DNA of 64,000 nucleotides, taken from Streptomyces sp. SID12501. Its GTDB lineage: Bacteria; Actinomycetota; Actinomycetes; Streptomycetales; Streptomycetaceae. The stretch covers positions 248,001-312,000 of the forward strand of contig NZ_JAAGLU010000003.1 of the NCBI RefSeq assembly GCF_010550245.1, written 5' to 3'. A model generated the notes under the pieces. That model searched no databases and was not told the DNA's origin. It saw only the letters and a program-made list of their open reading frames with translations. Positions 14,498-19,961 of this stretch are shown here, piece by piece; positions within the stretch are counted from its first letter, which is position 1; every line of letters begins with the position of its first letter. The position numbers and the translations under genes are program-made.

Positions 14498-14638
14498 GGC
14501 ACTCACCTTCTCCTGATCGACGCGCGCCGAATACACACTCGCGCCAAACCAGGATATGCCCGGTATGTGCGCTTGGTGTACACACGTTCGGCCTATTCGA
14601 AAATGCGCGCACGGTGACCAGCTGAACACGATGCGTGC

Positions 14639-15067
14639 ATGAACCAACGCATACGTACCCTGGTGCCTCTCACCGCTTTCGCGGCGTCGGCCATGGTGTC
14701 CCTGCTGCCGGGCACAGCCGCGGCACAGGCGGCCCCCGCCACCACCATGGTCAAGCTCCCGGCCGGCTACTGCTGCCAGGAACTCGCCCCCGCGAGCGAC
14801 AGTCACCTCGCCCATGTCCTTACCGAGGCGGATCTGACCGTCCCGTCAGACGTCTCCGTCGGCATCAACTGCCACCCGAGCAACTTCACGCCCGAGGAGC
14901 ACGTCGAGGAGTGCGAGCCCGGCGTCGCCGTGGAGTGCGTCGCCGACGCCCACGCGGGCCGGTACGGCCTGGTCGCGCTGGGCTGCGTCCCCGCGGGCTC
15001 CACCCACACCGTCGACCTGCACCGCGCGGGCGACGCACGTACGGGACGGACGGTGACGGCGTCATGA
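14639..15067 (+). CDS. secreted Cys-containing small protein
   Basis: 142 residues with a clear signal peptide (MNQRIRTLVPLTAFAASAMVSLLPGTAAAQA, cleavage after AAA or AQA). The mature part has six cysteines, including YCCQEL, INCHPSN, EECEPG, VECVAD and LGCVP, in a spacing suggestive of disulfides. No named domain is recognised, but a small hydrophobin-like or chaplin-like surface role is not supported by the sequence. Its stop overlaps the start of the pectate lyase gene (ATGA at 15064), so it is expressed with secreted polysaccharide-degrading enzymes. Confidence 0.75.
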   Translation: MNQRIRTLVPLTAFAASAMVSLLPGTAAAQAAPATTMVKLPAGYCCQELAPASDSHLAHVLTEADLTVPSDVSVGINCHPSNFTPEEHVEECEPGVAVECVADAHAGRYGLVALGCVPAGSTHTVDLHRAGDARTGRTVTAS

Positions 15068-15849
15068 ACATGAACCGGATGCGCACACTCCTCGGTGCCG
15101 GCCTCACCCTGGCGGTCGCCCTCACGCTCACCGCCGGGCCCTCCCCCGCCTCCGCCGCGAGCTGGCCGACCGCGAAGCGCACCCAGAAGGTGCCCGCGAC
15201 CATCAAGGTCCCCGCCGGCACCAGGGACTTCGACTTCACCCGCCTCGTCGGCAGCGGCGCCCTCGCCGGCGGCGACCAGGCCGAGAACCAGCCGCCCATC
15301 CTCGAACTCGCGGACGGCGCCACGATCTCCAACGTGATCATCGGGTCACCGGCCGCCGACGGCATCCACTGCCGGGGCACCTGCACCATCAAGAACGTCT
15401 GGTGGGAGGACGTCGGCGAGGACGCGGCCACGTTCAAGGGCACGCGCGCCAACCAGACGATGACGATCGACGGCGGCGGTGCCCGCAAGGCGGCCGACAA
15501 GGTCTTCCAGCACAACGGCCCCGGCACGTTCGTCATCAAGAACTTCGAGGTCGAGAACTTCGGCAAGCTGTACCGCTCCTGCGGCAACTGCAAGACCCAG
15601 TACCAGCGTCACGTGGTCCTCGACAACGTGACGATCAAGGCCCCCGGCCTGGACGTCGTCGGCATCAACGCCACGCCGTACGGCGACACGGCCAAGCTGA
15701 CCCGCGTCACCGTCGTCGGCGACGCGGCACGCAAGATCGTGATCTGCCAGAAGTTCCGCGGGGTGACCTCCGGTGAGCCCGCGAAGACGGGCTCGGGCCC
15801 GGACGGCAGGAACTGCATCTACCGCACGTCCGACGTCACGTACAAGTAA
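15064..15849 (+). CDS. secreted pectate lyase, polysaccharide lyase family 3
   Basis: 261 residues. Signal peptide 1-32 (cleavage ASA-ASW). The mature protein is a compact parallel beta-helix with PL3 signatures: ISNVIIGSPAADGIHCRGTCTIKNVWWEDVGEDAATFKG, DKVFQHNGPGTFVIKNFEVENFGKLYRSCGNC. PL3 enzymes cleave polygalacturonate by Ca-dependent beta-elimination. Aspartates and lysine/arginine expected for Ca binding and proton abstraction are in these stretches. Start codon lies in the ATGA overlap with 14639-15067, and a GH12 glucanase follows 30 bp later, forming a plant-cell-wall degradation operon. Confidence 0.9.
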   Translation: MNMNRMRTLLGAGLTLAVALTLTAGPSPASAASWPTAKRTQKVPATIKVPAGTRDFDFTRLVGSGALAGGDQAENQPPILELADGATISNVIIGSPAADGIHCRGTCTIKNVWWEDVGEDAATFKGTRANQTMTIDGGGARKAADKVFQHNGPGTFVIKNFEVENFGKLYRSCGNCKTQYQRHVVLDNVTIKAPGLDVVGINATPYGDTAKLTRVTVVGDAARKIVICQKFRGVTSGEPAKTGSGPDGRNCIYRTSDVTYK

Positions 15850-15879
15850 GCCGAGTTCGACAGGTAAGGAAGAGACATC

Positions 15880-16710
15880 GTGGTCACCATCAAACGCCTG
15901 TACCGCCTGCCGTTGCTCGTCGGCCTGGCGAGCGCGGCCGTCGCGGCACCCCTGCTGCTCGCCCCGGGCGCCTCCGCCGCTCCCGTCGCCGCTCCCGTCG
16001 CCAAGCGGGACTCGTGCACCGCCTTCAACACGGTGAAGATCCCGCCGTACTACCTCAACAACAACGTGTGGGGTGCGAAGGGCGCGACGGGCCAGGCGTG
16101 CACCTGGCTCAACTCGTACAAGAGCGGCAAGGCCAACTGGGAGACGTCCTTCGACTGGAAGGGCGGCGACCCGAACGGCGTCAAGTCGTACGCCAGCATC
16201 GTCCTGGGCTGGCACTGGGGCTGGAAGGACACCACCACCAAGCTCCCGGTCCGGCTCAACAGCGGCCGCAAGGTGACGTCGTCCTGGAACTTCAACATCA
16301 CCCAGACGACGCCGACGGTCATGAACGTCTCGTACGACCTCTGGTTCCACCAGAAGTCCAACCCGGACTGGCAGGACCAGCCGCACGACGAAATGATGGT
16401 CTGGCTCAACCGCCAGAACGGCGCGGGCCCCCTCGGCACGAAGCGCGAGACGCTGACCGTGGGCGGTGTCGCCTGGGACCTCTACGTCGGCAAGATCGTG
16501 AACACGAACAGCAGTTGGAACGTCTTCTCGTTCGTCCGCAAGACCAACACCAACTCGCAGACGACCGACCTGACGGGCCTGGCGAACGCACTGGTCCAGC
16601 GCAAGCTCATGGCCAACACCAACTACCTGACGAGCGTCGAGGCGGGCACGGAAGTCTTCCGCGGCAAGGGCAAGTTGAGCACGTCGTCGTACTCGGTGAA
16701 CGTGGGCTGA
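15880..16710 (+). CDS. secreted GH12 endo-beta-1,4-glucanase / xyloglucanase
   Basis: 276 residues from a GTG at 15880 (AGGAAGAG upstream). Signal peptide to about 33 (LLLAPGASAAPVA). The GH12 jelly-roll motifs are clear: NNVWGA, the nucleophile glutamate E171 in DEMMVWLN, and the acid/base E258 in GTEVFRG near the C-terminus. The length matches the catalytic domain alone; no carbohydrate-binding module is attached. It would hydrolyse cellulose or xyloglucan in the medium, complementing the pectate lyase 30 bp upstream. A terminator follows at 16732. Confidence 0.93.
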   Translation: MVTIKRLYRLPLLVGLASAAVAAPLLLAPGASAAPVAAPVAKRDSCTAFNTVKIPPYYLNNNVWGAKGATGQACTWLNSYKSGKANWETSFDWKGGDPNGVKSYASIVLGWHWGWKDTTTKLPVRLNSGRKVTSSWNFNITQTTPTVMNVSYDLWFHQKSNPDWQDQPHDEMMVWLNRQNGAGPLGTKRETLTVGGVAWDLYVGKIVNTNSSWNVFSFVRKTNTNSQTTDLTGLANALVQRKLMANTNYLTSVEAGTEVFRGKGKLSTSSYSVNVG

Positions 16711-16786: not shown

Positions 16787-17257
16787 CTATCGCTGTCGCG
16801 GCAGCCTGAGGGTCCGCACGAGGGGCATGTCCGCGTACAGGTCGGGATCTACGGTCAGTACGCGCCGGCCGTCCGGCCAGTCCGCCGTCGGCCTGGACAG
16901 GTGGACCGCGTGGCCGAGCCGCCACTCCACCCCGTCGCGCAGCAGCGCGCCCACGGTGGACGCACCCGCGAAGTCCAGCTCGACGATCTCGACGGCGGGC
17001 AGAGCCCCGATGTGCTCGGCCAGCCCCTTGCGCATGCCGTCGGCGGCGGCGAGGCAGAGCGCCGGTACGTACACGTGCCGGGTGGGCCCGTGCTCGGTGT
17101 TGGACACGAACTGCGAGGCGAGCGAGTTGCCCGACCCGAGCGCAAGCAGCGCCGACTCGTCGAAGACGACCCCGGTCGATCCGCCGGGCCCAGGCCTTCC
17201 GCCTCCCCCGGCGCCTCCCTTTCCGCTTGCCTTTCCGCTTCCCTTCTCGGCGCTCAC
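16787..17257 (-). CDS. PIN-like toxin of a type II toxin-antitoxin pair
   Basis: 156 residues from a GTG at 17257 that overlaps the antitoxin stop (GTGA). The first 27 residues are low-complexity Gly/Lys/Ser. The globular part begins VVFDESALLALGSGNSLA, where the early Asp in a hydrophobic strand is the first PIN-type acid, followed by LRDGVEWRLGHAVHL and VLTVDPDLY, with later acidic positions. PIN toxins are Mg-dependent ribonucleases. The match is by layout; the middle acidic residue is not obvious, so activity is unproven. The coupled upstream gene encodes a ribbon-helix-helix antitoxin. Confidence 0.65.
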   Translation of the reverse strand: MSAEKGSGKASGKGGAGGGGRPGPGGSTGVVFDESALLALGSGNSLASQFVSNTEHGPTRHVYVPALCLAAADGMRKGLAEHIGALPAVEIVELDFAGASTVGALLRDGVEWRLGHAVHLSRPTADWPDGRRVLTVDPDLYADMPLVRTLRLPRQR

Positions 17258-17517
17258 AGGCTCTCCACCTCCTGTCCGGCCTCCAGGTCCTGCCACACCT
17301 TCTCGACCCTGTCGTGGTCCTCGTCGGTGAGGGTGACACCGAAGTGCGTCTCGCAGTACGCCTTGGTCTCCTCGTACCGCTTCCGCAGCTCCTCCTGCGT
17401 GGGCGTGGCCCCCGCCAGCTCAGCGATCAGATCGCGCATGGTCATCCCGCGCTCGCGGGCGAGCACCATGAGGCGGTCGCGGACCAGGGGGTCGACCTTG
17501 ACGGTGGTGTCAGCCAT
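17254..17517 (-). CDS. ribbon-helix-helix antitoxin
   Basis: 87 residues. The start MADTTVKVDPLVRDRLMVLARERGMTMRDLIAELA is a typical MetJ/Arc/CopG ribbon-helix-helix: one DNA-binding strand followed by two helices for dimerisation. The C-terminal half is an acidic, helical toxin-binding tail (EELRKRYEETKAYCE..., QDLEAGQEVESL). The stop overlaps the GTG of the toxin, giving coupled synthesis. An operator-like pair of GTATAC sites lies directly upstream, and the mRNA is probably leaderless. Confidence 0.85.
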   Translation of the reverse strand: MADTTVKVDPLVRDRLMVLARERGMTMRDLIAELAGATPTQEELRKRYEETKAYCETHFGVTLTDEDHDRVEKVWQDLEAGQEVESL

Positions 17518-17541: not shown

Positions 17542-17589
17542 CGTCTCGGCCGCTCAAGCAATGCGGTCATCGGAGCCCTTTCGTGGAAA

Positions 17590-17608
17590 CCCCCGCTTCA
17601 GCTGGGGG
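17590..17608. repeat. right-end subterminal hairpin of IscB element
   Basis: CCCCCGC-TTCA-GC-T-GGGGG with one bulged T, preceded by GAAA and followed by AGGAAACGG. Similar in sequence to the hairpin at the other end. Confidence 0.6.
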
Positions 17609-17660
17609 AGGAAACGGAAGCGCAGGAGGGCCGCCAGGGCCCGAGTGGTGCTCTGAGGTG

Positions 17661-18959
17661 TCAGGGCGCATCACTCGGCCCGCCTTCGGGTTGCGTGGTG
17701 TAGGCGTAGCCGTCGGCGCGCTGGAGCAGACGGAAGTACTTGTACCGGGCGGTGTAGAGGCCGCCGGCGGTGCGGACTGCGAAGCTGCCGGAGGATCGGA
17801 CGGCGATGCGGCCGGTGTGGGTGCCCGCGTTCTTTCCCGACGGGACGACGGCCCGGACGAGGTCGCCGGTGGCGTAGCCGAAGAACTGTTTGGTGCGGGG
17901 CAGGCGCAGGCGGGGGAAACCGTGCTTGTCGGCGCGGGTTCGGGCGTAGGTGCCGCGCCCGGTGGCTTTGACGACCAGGACGGTGCGCGGCCATGCGGTG
18001 ACGGTGTCGAGGTCACCGACGGCCAGGGCGTCGAGGGTGTGGGTCTTGGGCAGTGCGCACCGGACGCGGTTCCATTTCGTGCGCCCGCCACTGGCGGTCC
18101 GGGTGGGCAGTCGTGCGTCCAGGGCCCGCCACAGGGCCCACCGGGTGGCGTTGACGGCGGCGGCGTCCCGGAGGGGGGCCTTCGCGCGCTTGAGGATGTC
18201 GGCGGCCTGCTTGGGGGCGAACTCCTCGACGGGCCGGTGGCCCTTGGCCTGGTTGCAGGGGATGCACGCGAGGGTCAGGTTGGAGACCCGGTCGGACCCG
18301 CCACGGCTGCGGGGCCGGATGTGGTCGATGTTCAGCGGCACGCCCGTCGCGCCGCAGTAGGAGCAGGCGCGGCCGAACTTCGCGAGGAGGTACTCGCGGA
18401 CCTCCGTGCCGTGCAGGGTGCCGTGCTGGTACTCGGCTCCTTCCAGCGGCTTCCCGGCACTGATGGCGTGGGTGTCGAATGCGACGCGCTCGACGTGGAC
18501 CGTACGGACCGGTGCCCAGCGGGCGAGGCGGCCGGTCCACGACATGGTGGTGTCGACACGGTGCTGGAGCGACGGCGGCAGCCAGCCCTTCGGGCGGGTT
18601 CGGTTGAGGAAGCGGGGTGCGCGGTAGCGCAGGTTGCGGGTACGCCGGCCCCGCCGGTAGGCGGATCGCTGCTCCAGCTTCTTGCGGATCGCGGCGCCCC
18701 GGTGGTCGAGCTGGACCGCGAACCGGCCCCGGCGCTCACCGTCCCGGGCGGTGAACACAGCCAGGCCGGTGTGCTTGGAGCCGGGGTCGATGCCCAGCTC
18801 GACACCGTCGACCTCCGAGGCGTCGGCGGTGCGGTCCTTCAGACGGATCACGAACGGTGTGTGCCGGGCGACGACCGCGCGGCCGGATACCAGGAGCTTG
18901 CGGGCCCTGGCGGGGCTGGTGGGCTGTAATGGCGTGCCGTGCTTGTCCAGGACGAACAC
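17661..18959 (-). CDS. iscB: IscB RNA-guided DNA endonuclease
   Basis: 432 residues from a GTG at 18959 (MFVLDKHGTPLQP...), the start typical of the PLMP domain; the open frame runs upstream to 19193 but that part overlaps the structured RNA. Domains: PLMP 1-50; RuvC-I with D58 (ELGIDPGSKHTGLAVF); Arg-rich bridge helix about 98-125; RuvC-II with E157 (VHVERVAFDTHAI); HNH with CSYC (C199, C202), IDH (D212, H213), second Cys pair region IPCN (C235) and H241; RuvC-III with H307 and D310 (THTLDAL); then a C-terminal TAM/PAM-reading region. All catalytic residues of both nuclease domains are intact. IscB is the ancestor type of Cas9 and is guided by an omega-RNA encoded just upstream of its gene. 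Confidence 0.92.
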   Translation of the reverse strand: MFVLDKHGTPLQPTSPARARKLLVSGRAVVARHTPFVIRLKDRTADASEVDGVELGIDPGSKHTGLAVFTARDGERRGRFAVQLDHRGAAIRKKLEQRSAYRRGRRTRNLRYRAPRFLNRTRPKGWLPPSLQHRVDTTMSWTGRLARWAPVRTVHVERVAFDTHAISAGKPLEGAEYQHGTLHGTEVREYLLAKFGRACSYCGATGVPLNIDHIRPRSRGGSDRVSNLTLACIPCNQAKGHRPVEEFAPKQAADILKRAKAPLRDAAAVNATRWALWRALDARLPTRTASGGRTKWNRVRCALPKTHTLDALAVGDLDTVTAWPRTVLVVKATGRGTYARTRADKHGFPRLRLPRTKQFFGYATGDLVRAVVPSGKNAGTHTGRIAVRSSGSFAVRTAGGLYTARYKYFRLLQRADGYAYTTQPEGGPSDAP

Positions 18960-19295
18960 GGCGGGGTCGGCCTCACGGCCGGGCTCCCGGACCTGATGGT
19001 CCGGGGTGACGCCACCGGCAGTAGGTGCACTGCCGGTGATCTCCCCTCGCACATGTTCCACACCGGATGCCTTACGGCGTCCGAGCCCCGTTTCGTCCCT
19101 GATCCCGGGGTTGTCTGCTGACTCGAATTCCAGAGCCAACTGCTGAGGAAGCACAGATGGGTGGGTCTTCTGTCCTGCGTGGAACGTAGCCAACTTCGGT
19201 CACCTCCATATCAGTTGGCTGGTGCTGGTAACAGCGGACCATCAGCCGGTCGGGCTGAAAGCCCCCGCCGCCTTCAGGCGGGGGATCCCATTACC
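18960..19295 (-). ncRNA. omega-RNA (HEARO-like) for IscB
   Basis: The region 5' of iscB on the coding strand contains a series of strong stems: CCCCCGCC/GGCGGGGG (19284-19262), AGCCAACT/AGTTGGCT (19220-19188), a GGACGCC-GTAA-GGCATCC hairpin near 19083-19066, ACCGGCAGT/ACTGCCGGT (19037-19014, perfect 9 bp), and CCCGGACC-ATCA-GGTCCGGG (19005-18986, perfect 8 bp). HEARO RNAs are known to lie exactly here and to carry the guide at their 5' end, so the guide would come from DNA just beyond about 19285-19320. Ends are estimated. Confidence 0.7.
19262..19284. repeat. left-end subterminal hairpin of IscB element
   Basis: Perfect 8-bp stem CCCCCGCC/GGCGGGGG with loop GCCTTCA, preceded by GAAAG. It is both the probable transposase-recognition hairpin and the first stem of the omega-RNA. 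Confidence 0.6.
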
Positions 19296-19357
19296 CTGTT
19301 TCCTTCCGGGTGGGTCGACCCGGCCGCACGGACGTACGGCCGGGAGTCTGTGTGTGC

Positions 19358-19801
19358 CTACGCGGGCGCGGGCCGCCCCTGCGGCAGGGCGCGGGCCAGG
19401 GCGCCGCCGCGTCGCACGGCCACGCGGTAGCCGGAGGCCCCGGATCGCGACTCACCGGAGGCCGGCTTCTGAACTTCTTCGGATTCACCCGTGGGCGGCT
19501 CGTCCTCGTACGGAGTGTCGAACACCTCGTACACGGTGGAGAATTGCCCGGACTCCTCGTCCTTGCGCACCACCCGCCGCAGATACCGGGATTCCTCCAG
19601 CTCATGCAGGGCGGCGGCGATCCGCGCCCGCCCTTCCTTGCGCTGCTCGGCGAGGGTACGGATGGTGGCGCGGGCGCCGTTCGGCAGACTGAGGAGGTAC
19701 GTCAGTACGCCTACCGCGCACCAGGAGAGACTCCGGTCGCGGAGAAGGGCGTTGCTGAACACTGAAAAGGCGCGCGTGGGCGTCGTACGATGAATCCGCA
19801 C
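19358..19801 (-). CDS. helix-turn-helix DNA-binding protein of a Streptomyces-specific family
   Basis: 147 residues from a GTG at 19801, six bases after GGAG; upstream in-frame codons to 19924 give an unlikely N-terminus. The conserved core is VRIHRTTPTRAFSVFSNALLRDRSLSWCAVGVLTYLLSLPNGARATIRTLAEQRKEGRARIAAALHELEESRYLRRV, a winged helix (about residues 20-80) similar to replication/plasmid-type HTH proteins common in Streptomyces. The tail is acidic, then low-complexity Arg/Ala. Its 3' end lies about 60 bp from the IscB element, and the tail differs from the more usual family ending, so the insertion or a nearby rearrangement may have altered it. Role: probable transcription factor. Confidence 0.75.
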   Translation of the reverse strand: MRIHRTTPTRAFSVFSNALLRDRSLSWCAVGVLTYLLSLPNGARATIRTLAEQRKEGRARIAAALHELEESRYLRRVVRKDEESGQFSTVYEVFDTPYEDEPPTGESEEVQKPASGESRSGASGYRVAVRRGGALARALPQGRPAPA

Positions 19802-19961
19802 TGGGAGCTCCAGCAATTCGTGTGTGGAGCTGGCGCTCCGGGTGTCGAGCCCCCGGGTGTTGGCGCACCGCGGGGGCGTTCTTTGTTGCCGTGACTCTAA
19901 GGGCACGCAGAGCGACGAATGCAAGCTGAACGGGCTTTTACGGGGTGGAAGTTCGCGTTCT

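What the first reader, a model, noticed from the sequence alone, without database searches (positions are those of the whole stretch)
17577..19300. Intact IscB nuclease with a structured omega-RNA leader in a Streptomyces chromosome
Seen: a 432-residue protein with complete RuvC-I/II/III acids (D58, E157, H307/D310), an Arg-rich bridge helix and a complete HNH site, preceded on the coding strand by at least five strong hairpins and flanked by related CCCCCGC-CTTCAG palindromes. Known: IscB proteins are RNA-guided nucleases ancestral to Cas9, their guide RNA (HEARO/omega-RNA) is encoded just 5' of the gene, and IS200/IS605-type ends mobilise them in trans. Inference: this copy is active and its guide corresponds to the DNA just beyond about 19285-19320.
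Basis: partly seen in the sequence, partly recalled or inferred. Interest (0 to 1): 0.95.

Follow-up and report, generated by a model that had tools for sequence, protein, structure and literature searches.

The report
Guide RNA doubling as nuclease message
A Streptomyces genome carries a complete mobile element for the RNA-guided DNA-cutting enzyme IscB, sitting exactly between a ribosome-binding site and an ATGA start site, and its guide RNA also holds an in-frame translation start from which the enzyme is likely made, so that one RNA would have to serve either as guide or as message.

Summary
Window 19294..17571 (-) is a 1,724-bp IscB/HEARO element: IscB with conserved catalytic residues and an omegaRNA (HEARO, E 8.8e-14; 69.2 bits, under Rfam's gathering score 83). 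A relative without IscB has the exact empty site: flank CCCGGAAGGAAACAGG (predicted guide) joined to ATGA (predicted TAM), no duplication.

(1) Related elements nearly always abut ATGA, usually the start of a gene, and actinobacterial ones tend to end in a Shine-Dalgarno sequence, so they probably re-supply the ribosome-binding site they displace. (2) In the actinobacterial clade a strong Shine-Dalgarno sequence lies in an omegaRNA loop and a TTG/ATG start codon in that hairpin's stem; the frame runs open through the omegaRNA into iscB (44 of 46). On the IscB tree its length changed 25 times, leaving frame once; the 5' part of the same RNA changed 29 times, 20 out of phase. The start codon's first base covaries with its stem partner. 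Guide folding and translation probably exclude each other, which suggests autoregulation.

Against: the extra peptide shows no amino-acid selection; GTG at the usual IscB start is also enriched, so a short form is probably made too; in this window the host reading frame is shifted. Nothing was tested at the bench.

The parts
17571..19294 (-). whole element, 1,724 bp, no target duplication
   Evidence: exact empty site in L119 (G091): upstream flank 86.8% identical over 152 nt and downstream flank 92.5% over 896 nt meet with no base lost or gained; G091 has no IscB, only an HNH-domain match
19295..19310 (-). predicted 16-nt guide, CCCGGAAGGAAACAGG; holds the Shine-Dalgarno sequence GGAAGGA of the site before insertion
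   Evidence: host DNA directly 5' of the HEARO start; 16-nt length and 5' position of the guide follow known IscB biology (recalled)
19036..19294 (-). omegaRNA (HEARO) scaffold
   Evidence: RF02033 E 8.8e-14; 71 consensus pairs, 30 with compensatory changes in 28 sequences
19200..19207 (-). Shine-Dalgarno sequence GGAGGTGA in a loop of the omegaRNA
   Evidence: GGAGGTGA in 27 of 28 rows of alignment A1, GGGGGTGA in the other; read
19191..19193 (-). TTG start codon inside the omegaRNA, in the 3' strand of the hairpin stem (partner strand 19220-19214)
   Evidence: TTG in 21 and ATG in 7 of 28 rows of A1; paired columns 81-83 with 112-114
17661..19193 (-). long iscB frame, 510 aa, read through the omegaRNA
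17661..18959 (-). iscB, short form from GTG, 432 aa, RuvC and HNH residues intact
17590..17608 (-). right-end hairpin CCCCCAGCTGAAGCGGGGG, related to the left-end hairpin
17577..17582 (-). GAAAGG, Shine-Dalgarno-like sequence at the element's 3' end
   Evidence: anti-SD duplex energy of the last stretch -8.6 kcal/mol, against -9.3 for the host flank it displaces
17567..17570 (-). ATGA: predicted TAM, start codon of the site in relatives
17254..17517 (-). host gene downstream (87 aa from the internal ATG, probably ribbon-helix-helix; no Pfam match)
   Evidence: in L119 the frame from the ATGA runs into it, here one C is missing, so the ATGA opens only 42 codons

Best explanation
This is a complete IscB transposon-like element sitting exactly between the ribosome-binding site and the ATGA start of a host site, and its guide RNA carries, inside a conserved hairpin, a Shine-Dalgarno sequence and an in-frame start codon from which the IscB nuclease is likely translated. 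Shown by sequence: the exact empty site, the ATGA at the boundary, the HEARO fold with covariation, the in-phase open frame through the guide RNA. Inferred: host transcription would run from upstream into the element, giving an RNA whose first nucleotides (the former ribosome-binding region of the host site) form the guide. While the hairpin is open, ribosomes would load on the loop's Shine-Dalgarno sequence and make a long IscB whose first ~78 residues are a by-product of reading the scaffold; once IscB binds and folds its scaffold, the start codon is buried and that transcript becomes guide. Each transcript would thus be message or guide, which would hold nuclease and guide in balance. The ribonucleoprotein would cut the empty allele (guide match plus ATGA) and so favour copying back of the element; the occupied site reads GTAA after the guide and should be spared. 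The Shine-Dalgarno-like 3' end would let the displaced host gene still be translated.
For: Empty site exact, in a genome without IscB. Right ends were assigned in 69 copies (window plus 68 of 80 named loci): ATGA 66, GTGA 2, ATGC 1 (control); 59 of 69 open at least 80 codons, against 260 of 562 and 374 of 812 control ATGA/GTGA sites; 42 of the 59 have a Pfam match over its cut-off, and in 28 of these 42 the domain begins by residue 30 with its own N-terminus. Anti-SD energy of the last stretch, 50 actinobacterial copies: mean -6.09, own shuffles -2.75, p 3.6e-10. Guide/ORF overlap: start to IscB residue 1 is a multiple of 3 in 44 of 46 copies with 11 different lengths, the 5' part of the same RNA falls 17/15/14 over the three phases; within the omegaRNA alone 44 of 45; 25 length changes with 1 change of phase, against 29 with 20; open in 44 of 46, 7.0 expected from shuffles; anti-SD energy -9.90 before the internal start and -3.43 before residue 1, stronger in 46 of 46; A-T 24, T-A 18, G-T 2 between start-codon first base and stem partner, 2 not found. 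Rows not used to find the pattern: 9 of 10 at 62% identity or more and 9 of 9 anchored rows below it are in frame and open; in 8 of those 9 residue 1 is GTC or GTT, not a start codon. Gene callers already give long forms: 99 of 120 listed proteins cover at least 96% of residues 1-140.
Against: No amino-acid selection in the omegaRNA part: synonymous share 0.261 against 0.265 expected, no third-position excess; residues 1-68 are predicted disordered, pLDDT under 50. GTG at residue 1 is enriched (42 of 48, against 10 of 46 at residue 3 and 518 of 1501 other valines), so the short form is probably made as well. PGAP calls the short form in Streptomyces canus. The more distant set shows the frame open in only 6 of 17 and the internal Shine-Dalgarno sequence in 2 of 17, and no Shine-Dalgarno at the 3' end (19 copies, mean -2.16 against shuffles -2.06). 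One insertion (L056) lies inside a gene. In the window the host frame from the ATGA is shifted. Copies are related, so p values are too small. No expression data.
Confidence: 0.68

Rival explanations
1. iscB is translated only from the GTG at residue 1; the loop Shine-Dalgarno sequence and open frame are side effects of RNA conservation and G+C richness.
For: GTG at residue 1 in 42 of 48; no amino-acid selection upstream; short form annotated in S. canus; curators of IscB sets trim N-terminal extensions (passage of PMC13180657).
Against: Phase kept through 25 length changes, 44 of 46 open with 7.0 expected, start codon TTG/ATG in 28 of 28, no start codon at residue 1 in 8 of 9 anchored rows of the more distant hold-out.
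Confidence: 0.12
2. Both starts are used as two isoforms, the long one being the regulated or minor product; no switch between guide and message is involved.
For: Both starts look selected in the main clade.
Against: The start codon is kept paired by compensatory changes, which a plain second start would not need; but the pairing is also needed for the guide fold, so this is weak.
Confidence: 0.3
3. The ATGA boundary reflects only the target-motif taste of transposase and nuclease; gene starts prevail because insertions there are tolerated, and the Shine-Dalgarno-like 3' end is inherited, not selected.
For: NTGA/NTG motifs are measured for IsrB proteins (passages of PMC9581776); insertion inside an aldehyde dehydrogenase gene in L056; Nocardiopsis and proteobacterial right ends lack the Shine-Dalgarno sequence.
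Against: Actinobacterial 3' ends are far more Shine-Dalgarno-like than their shuffles with varied wording; sites include nrdB, guaB, uppS and era, where loss of translation should be costly.
Confidence: 0.35
4. A decaying remnant without present function.
For: Single copy, no transposase at hand, damaged copies common among relatives, host frame shifted here.
Against: Intact frame and catalytic residues, full HEARO match, intact ends.
Confidence: 0.15

Closest known systems
IscB/omegaRNA (OMEGA) systems, e.g. OgeuIscB (PDB 7xht, 8csz) and TbaIscB (9k30)
   Same: RRXRR-RuvC-HNH protein, guided_IscB model, HEARO RNA upstream, guide from the flanking DNA
   Different: the published practice sets the omegaRNA 3' end about 2 bp before the protein start (passage); here the protein frame also runs through the omegaRNA
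TnpB, whose omegaRNA comes from its own mRNA (PMC10278001, passages seen)
   Same: one transcript serves as message and guide precursor
   Different: TnpB's RNA is at the 3' end with the guide 3'; here the overlap is at the 5' end and contains the start codon
HEARO elements of Weinberg et al. 2009 (not held; recalled to insert at ATGA or GTGA)
   Same: RNA family, nuclease gene, motif at the insertion site
   Different: start-codon setting, Shine-Dalgarno replacement and frame through the RNA are what is added here; whether that paper says any of it could not be checked
IsrB nickases with NTGA/NTG TAMs (PMC9581776, passages)
   Same: TAM 3' of the target that can read as a start codon
   Different: no HNH domain

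Membership tests
IscB | RRXRR/PLMP start, RuvC split by bridge helix and HNH, catalytic residues | tested here: met
IscB | HEARO omegaRNA 5' of the gene | tested here: met
   E 8.8e-14; bit score 69.2 is under the gathering score of 83 (one search lists none); covariation
IscB | guide from flanking DNA, target motif on the other side | tested here: met
   empty site joins flank to ATGA; function not tested
IscB | RNA-guided double-strand cleavage | not testable with these tools
   needs purified ribonucleoprotein
IS200/IS605 type element | subterminal hairpins, no target duplication | tested here: met
IS200/IS605 type element | own Y1 transposase in the element | tested here: not met
   the 1,724 bp hold iscB only; two own-genome TnpA proteins have no match (E 1e-4) in the flanks of 80 named relatives; solo iscB elements are a known form (passage)

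The most novel reading that the evidence does not exclude
In actinobacterial IscB elements the guide RNA is a self-limiting message: the nuclease is made from a start codon buried in its own guide scaffold, IscB binding closes the hairpin and turns message into guide, and the whole element is a translationally transparent insert that uses host start codons as target motifs, former ribosome-binding sites as guides, and its own 3' Shine-Dalgarno sequence to keep the host gene translated.
Probability: 0.42. Interest if true: 0.9.

Novelty: new variant of a known kind. Interest (0 to 1): 0.76.

Why it matters
[quoted passage not shown] A guide scaffold that must also be read by ribosomes would be a direct link between nuclease dose and guide supply, would mean that N-terminal extensions trimmed by curators can be real, and would tell engineers where the true start is. 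Start codons used as target motifs, with a ribosome-binding site brought along, would explain how these elements live next to genes such as nrdB, guaB and uppS.

Tried and rejected
Homing shown by same-site copies: rejected as unproven. One gene (FTIAADG) is hit in 4 rows needing 3 changes on the tree, another (sacDH) in 2 rows needing 2, with different guides; guaB copies are one clade; the nrdB rows share nearly the same guide but are not shown to be one clade. Link of own-genome TnpA to this element: no evidence. Selection on the extra peptide: tested and not found. Self-targeting in the own genome: three sites within 3 mismatches of guide+ATGA; one is the element's own junction (ends GTAA), the others end ATGG and AGGA, none ATGA. 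The wider scan (154 of 392 genomes, a capped list of matches; reversed-pattern control in roughly two dozen genomes by hand count) mostly finds other ribosome-binding sites followed by ATGA and says nothing on targets. ORF length alone is a weak test in G+C-rich DNA (controls about 46%), hence the Pfam check. In one search single offsets of the position profile were spoilt by failed duplexes; only the whole-stretch means are used. Rows dropped: 12 of 80 named loci without a recognised right end; L018, L068, L098, L102 for the left end; L088 and L111 are the two out-of-phase rows of 46, and in both the iscB match is broken, so residue 1 was extrapolated; L016, out of phase, matches only from residue 21. 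About 50 right ends came from a pattern that itself asked for [AG]TGA, the rest by eye, so the ATGA count is partly circular; the empty site, the gene starts and ATGC in L043 are independent. The anchor pattern allowed A, T or G first, not C; alignment A1, made without it, has TTG 21 and ATG 7 of 28.

Full report
The observation. The minus-strand protein at 17661-18959 is a full IscB with its RuvC and HNH residues conserved across 46 sequences; its nearest solved relative is TbaIscB, E 2.6e-50. The leader 19294..19036 matches the whole HEARO model, E 8.8e-14, though under the curated score, as do 8 of 8 and 10 of 10 relatives scanned. In 28 aligned leaders 30 of 71 consensus pairs show compensatory changes. 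The own genome has this one copy. Of 392 same-genus genomes 387 have some match, mostly only the HNH domain; by hand count of the list 42 have a match of E 1e-40 or better, several of them broken.

The ends. Thirty-two of 295 genomes matched the upstream flank; 20 loci were fetched. In L119 (G091) the left flank and the right flank of the element meet exactly...CCCGGAAGGAAACAGG / ATGACCGCATTGCTTGAG..., and G091 has no IscB. The element is 1,724 bp, without target duplication. In L119 the frame from this ATG runs in phase into a small, probably ribbon-helix-helix gene, with GGAAGGA as its Shine-Dalgarno sequence (read). In the window one C is missing after the boundary, so the ATG opens only 42 codons and the host gene must start at its internal ATG, 17517; a TATACT just before it may allow a leaderless message (inference).

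The site. Of 159 relatives found the best 80 were kept. Right ends were assigned in 68 of these plus the window: ATGA 66, GTGA 2, ATGC 1. Of the 59 frames of at least 80 codons that start there, 42 have a Pfam family over its cut-off and 28 of these begin the domain by residue 30 with its N-terminus, among them ribonucleotide reductase small chain, IMP dehydrogenase, undecaprenyl diphosphate synthase, homoserine dehydrogenase and LacI, MerR and Fur regulators. L056 lies inside an aldehyde dehydrogenase gene. The last stretch of 50 actinobacterial elements resembles a Shine-Dalgarno sequence far more than its shuffles (mean -6.09 against -2.75 kcal/mol; 32 of 50 at -6 or below, against 141 of 1500 random iscB stretches), as does the host flank before the element (48 copies, -5.76 against -4.05). 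Nineteen more distant elements show none at the 3' end (-2.16 against -2.06; 0 of 19). The tree puts the window's IscB beside copies from Actinacidiphila, Nonomuraea and Streptomyces acidiscabies, next to different genes, as expected of a mobile element.

The overlap. In A1, GGAGGTGA (27 of 28; GGGGGTGA in one) lies in the loop of the hairpin AGCCAAC...GTTGGCT, and TTG (21) or ATG (7) in its 3' strand. That codon is in frame with iscB. In 48 actinobacterial copies (window plus 47 named loci with both ends assigned) the anchor was found in 46 without asking for frame: the distance to IscB residue 1 is a multiple of three in 44, with 11 different lengths, while the distance from the RNA's 5' end to the anchor is spread 17/15/14. 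The two exceptions have broken iscB matches. Within the omegaRNA alone 44 of 45 lengths are multiples of three. On an IscB tree of 45 rows the start-to-IscB length changes at least 25 times with one change of phase; the 5' part changes 29 times with 20 changes of phase. The frame is open in 44 of 46, 7.0 expected from shuffles. The Shine-Dalgarno sequence before this start is stronger than that before residue 1 in 46 of 46. The first base of the start codon and its stem partner change together (A-T 24, T-A 18, G-T 2, 2 not found).

Check on other rows. Of 15 below that, the anchor was found in 9, all in frame and open, and in 8 of these 9 residue 1 is GTC or GTT; some have another GTG or ATG 5-28 codons upstream. 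Among 17 more distant copies of the named set the frame is open in 6 and GGAGGT present in 2; many have an ATG two codons before residue 1 instead.

What is not there. The extra peptide is not under amino-acid selection and is predicted disordered. GTG at residue 1 is enriched in the main clade, so two products are likely. What seems to be kept is phase, openness and the start, that is, passage of ribosomes.

Literature. Eight searches were answered. I found no listing on translation through an IscB guide RNA or on start-codon sites with a replaced ribosome-binding site; the library is partial, and Weinberg 2009 and Altae-Tran 2021 are not held. Passages seen: IsrB TAMs NTGA/NTG (PMC9581776); HEARO in the 5' UTR of 65% of one nuclease set and only a few nucleases near TnpA (PMC9755519); trimming of N-terminal extensions and the omegaRNA end set about 2 bp before the protein (PMC13180657); TnpB making its guide from its own message (PMC10278001). 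That HEARO elements insert at ATGA/GTGA is my recollection of Weinberg 2009.

Verdict. The element is a member of the IscB family in a variant whose guide RNA is very probably also translated, and whose insertion at start codons with a Shine-Dalgarno-like 3' end looks designed by selection to be tolerated. The switch between guide and message is inference.

Noticed in passing
L022-L028 and L031, downstream of iscB: A second Streptomyces IscB clade has the Rfam sRNA Ms_IGR-5 (RF02471) directly downstream in 8 of the 10 loci scanned (not in L017 and L148). In several rows the left flank ends in AAGGAG or AAGGGAG, and a like sequence precedes GTGG/GTGA before a short leader-like ORF on the right, as if the element sat inside that ORF's Shine-Dalgarno sequence and repeated it.
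   Followed up: partly
window 19358-19924 (-): The upstream host gene has lost about 0.46 kb internally relative to G264, G079 and G091: its two parts match there as separate pieces.
   Followed up: no
window 16787-17517 (-): Small probable ribbon-helix-helix gene followed by a 169-aa gene with a PIN-like look; neither has a Pfam match. Possibly a toxin-antitoxin pair (inference).
   Followed up: no
L040, L045, L046, L048, L052, L061: Streptomyces sp. AP-93 carries at least six IscB copies at different sites, a good strain for bench work.
   Followed up: no
L049, L012, L072: Insertion between nrdA and nrdB: the former overlapping stop and start are split, and the element's first base completes a new TAG stop for nrdA (read; my reading).
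   Followed up: partly
L136-L141 (own genome): Y1 transposase genes beside divergent TnpB-like sequence; one (L141) is damaged.
   Followed up: partly
window 14635-16710 (+): Secreted pectate lyase and glycosyl hydrolase family 12 genes lie next to the element's downstream flank.
   Followed up: no
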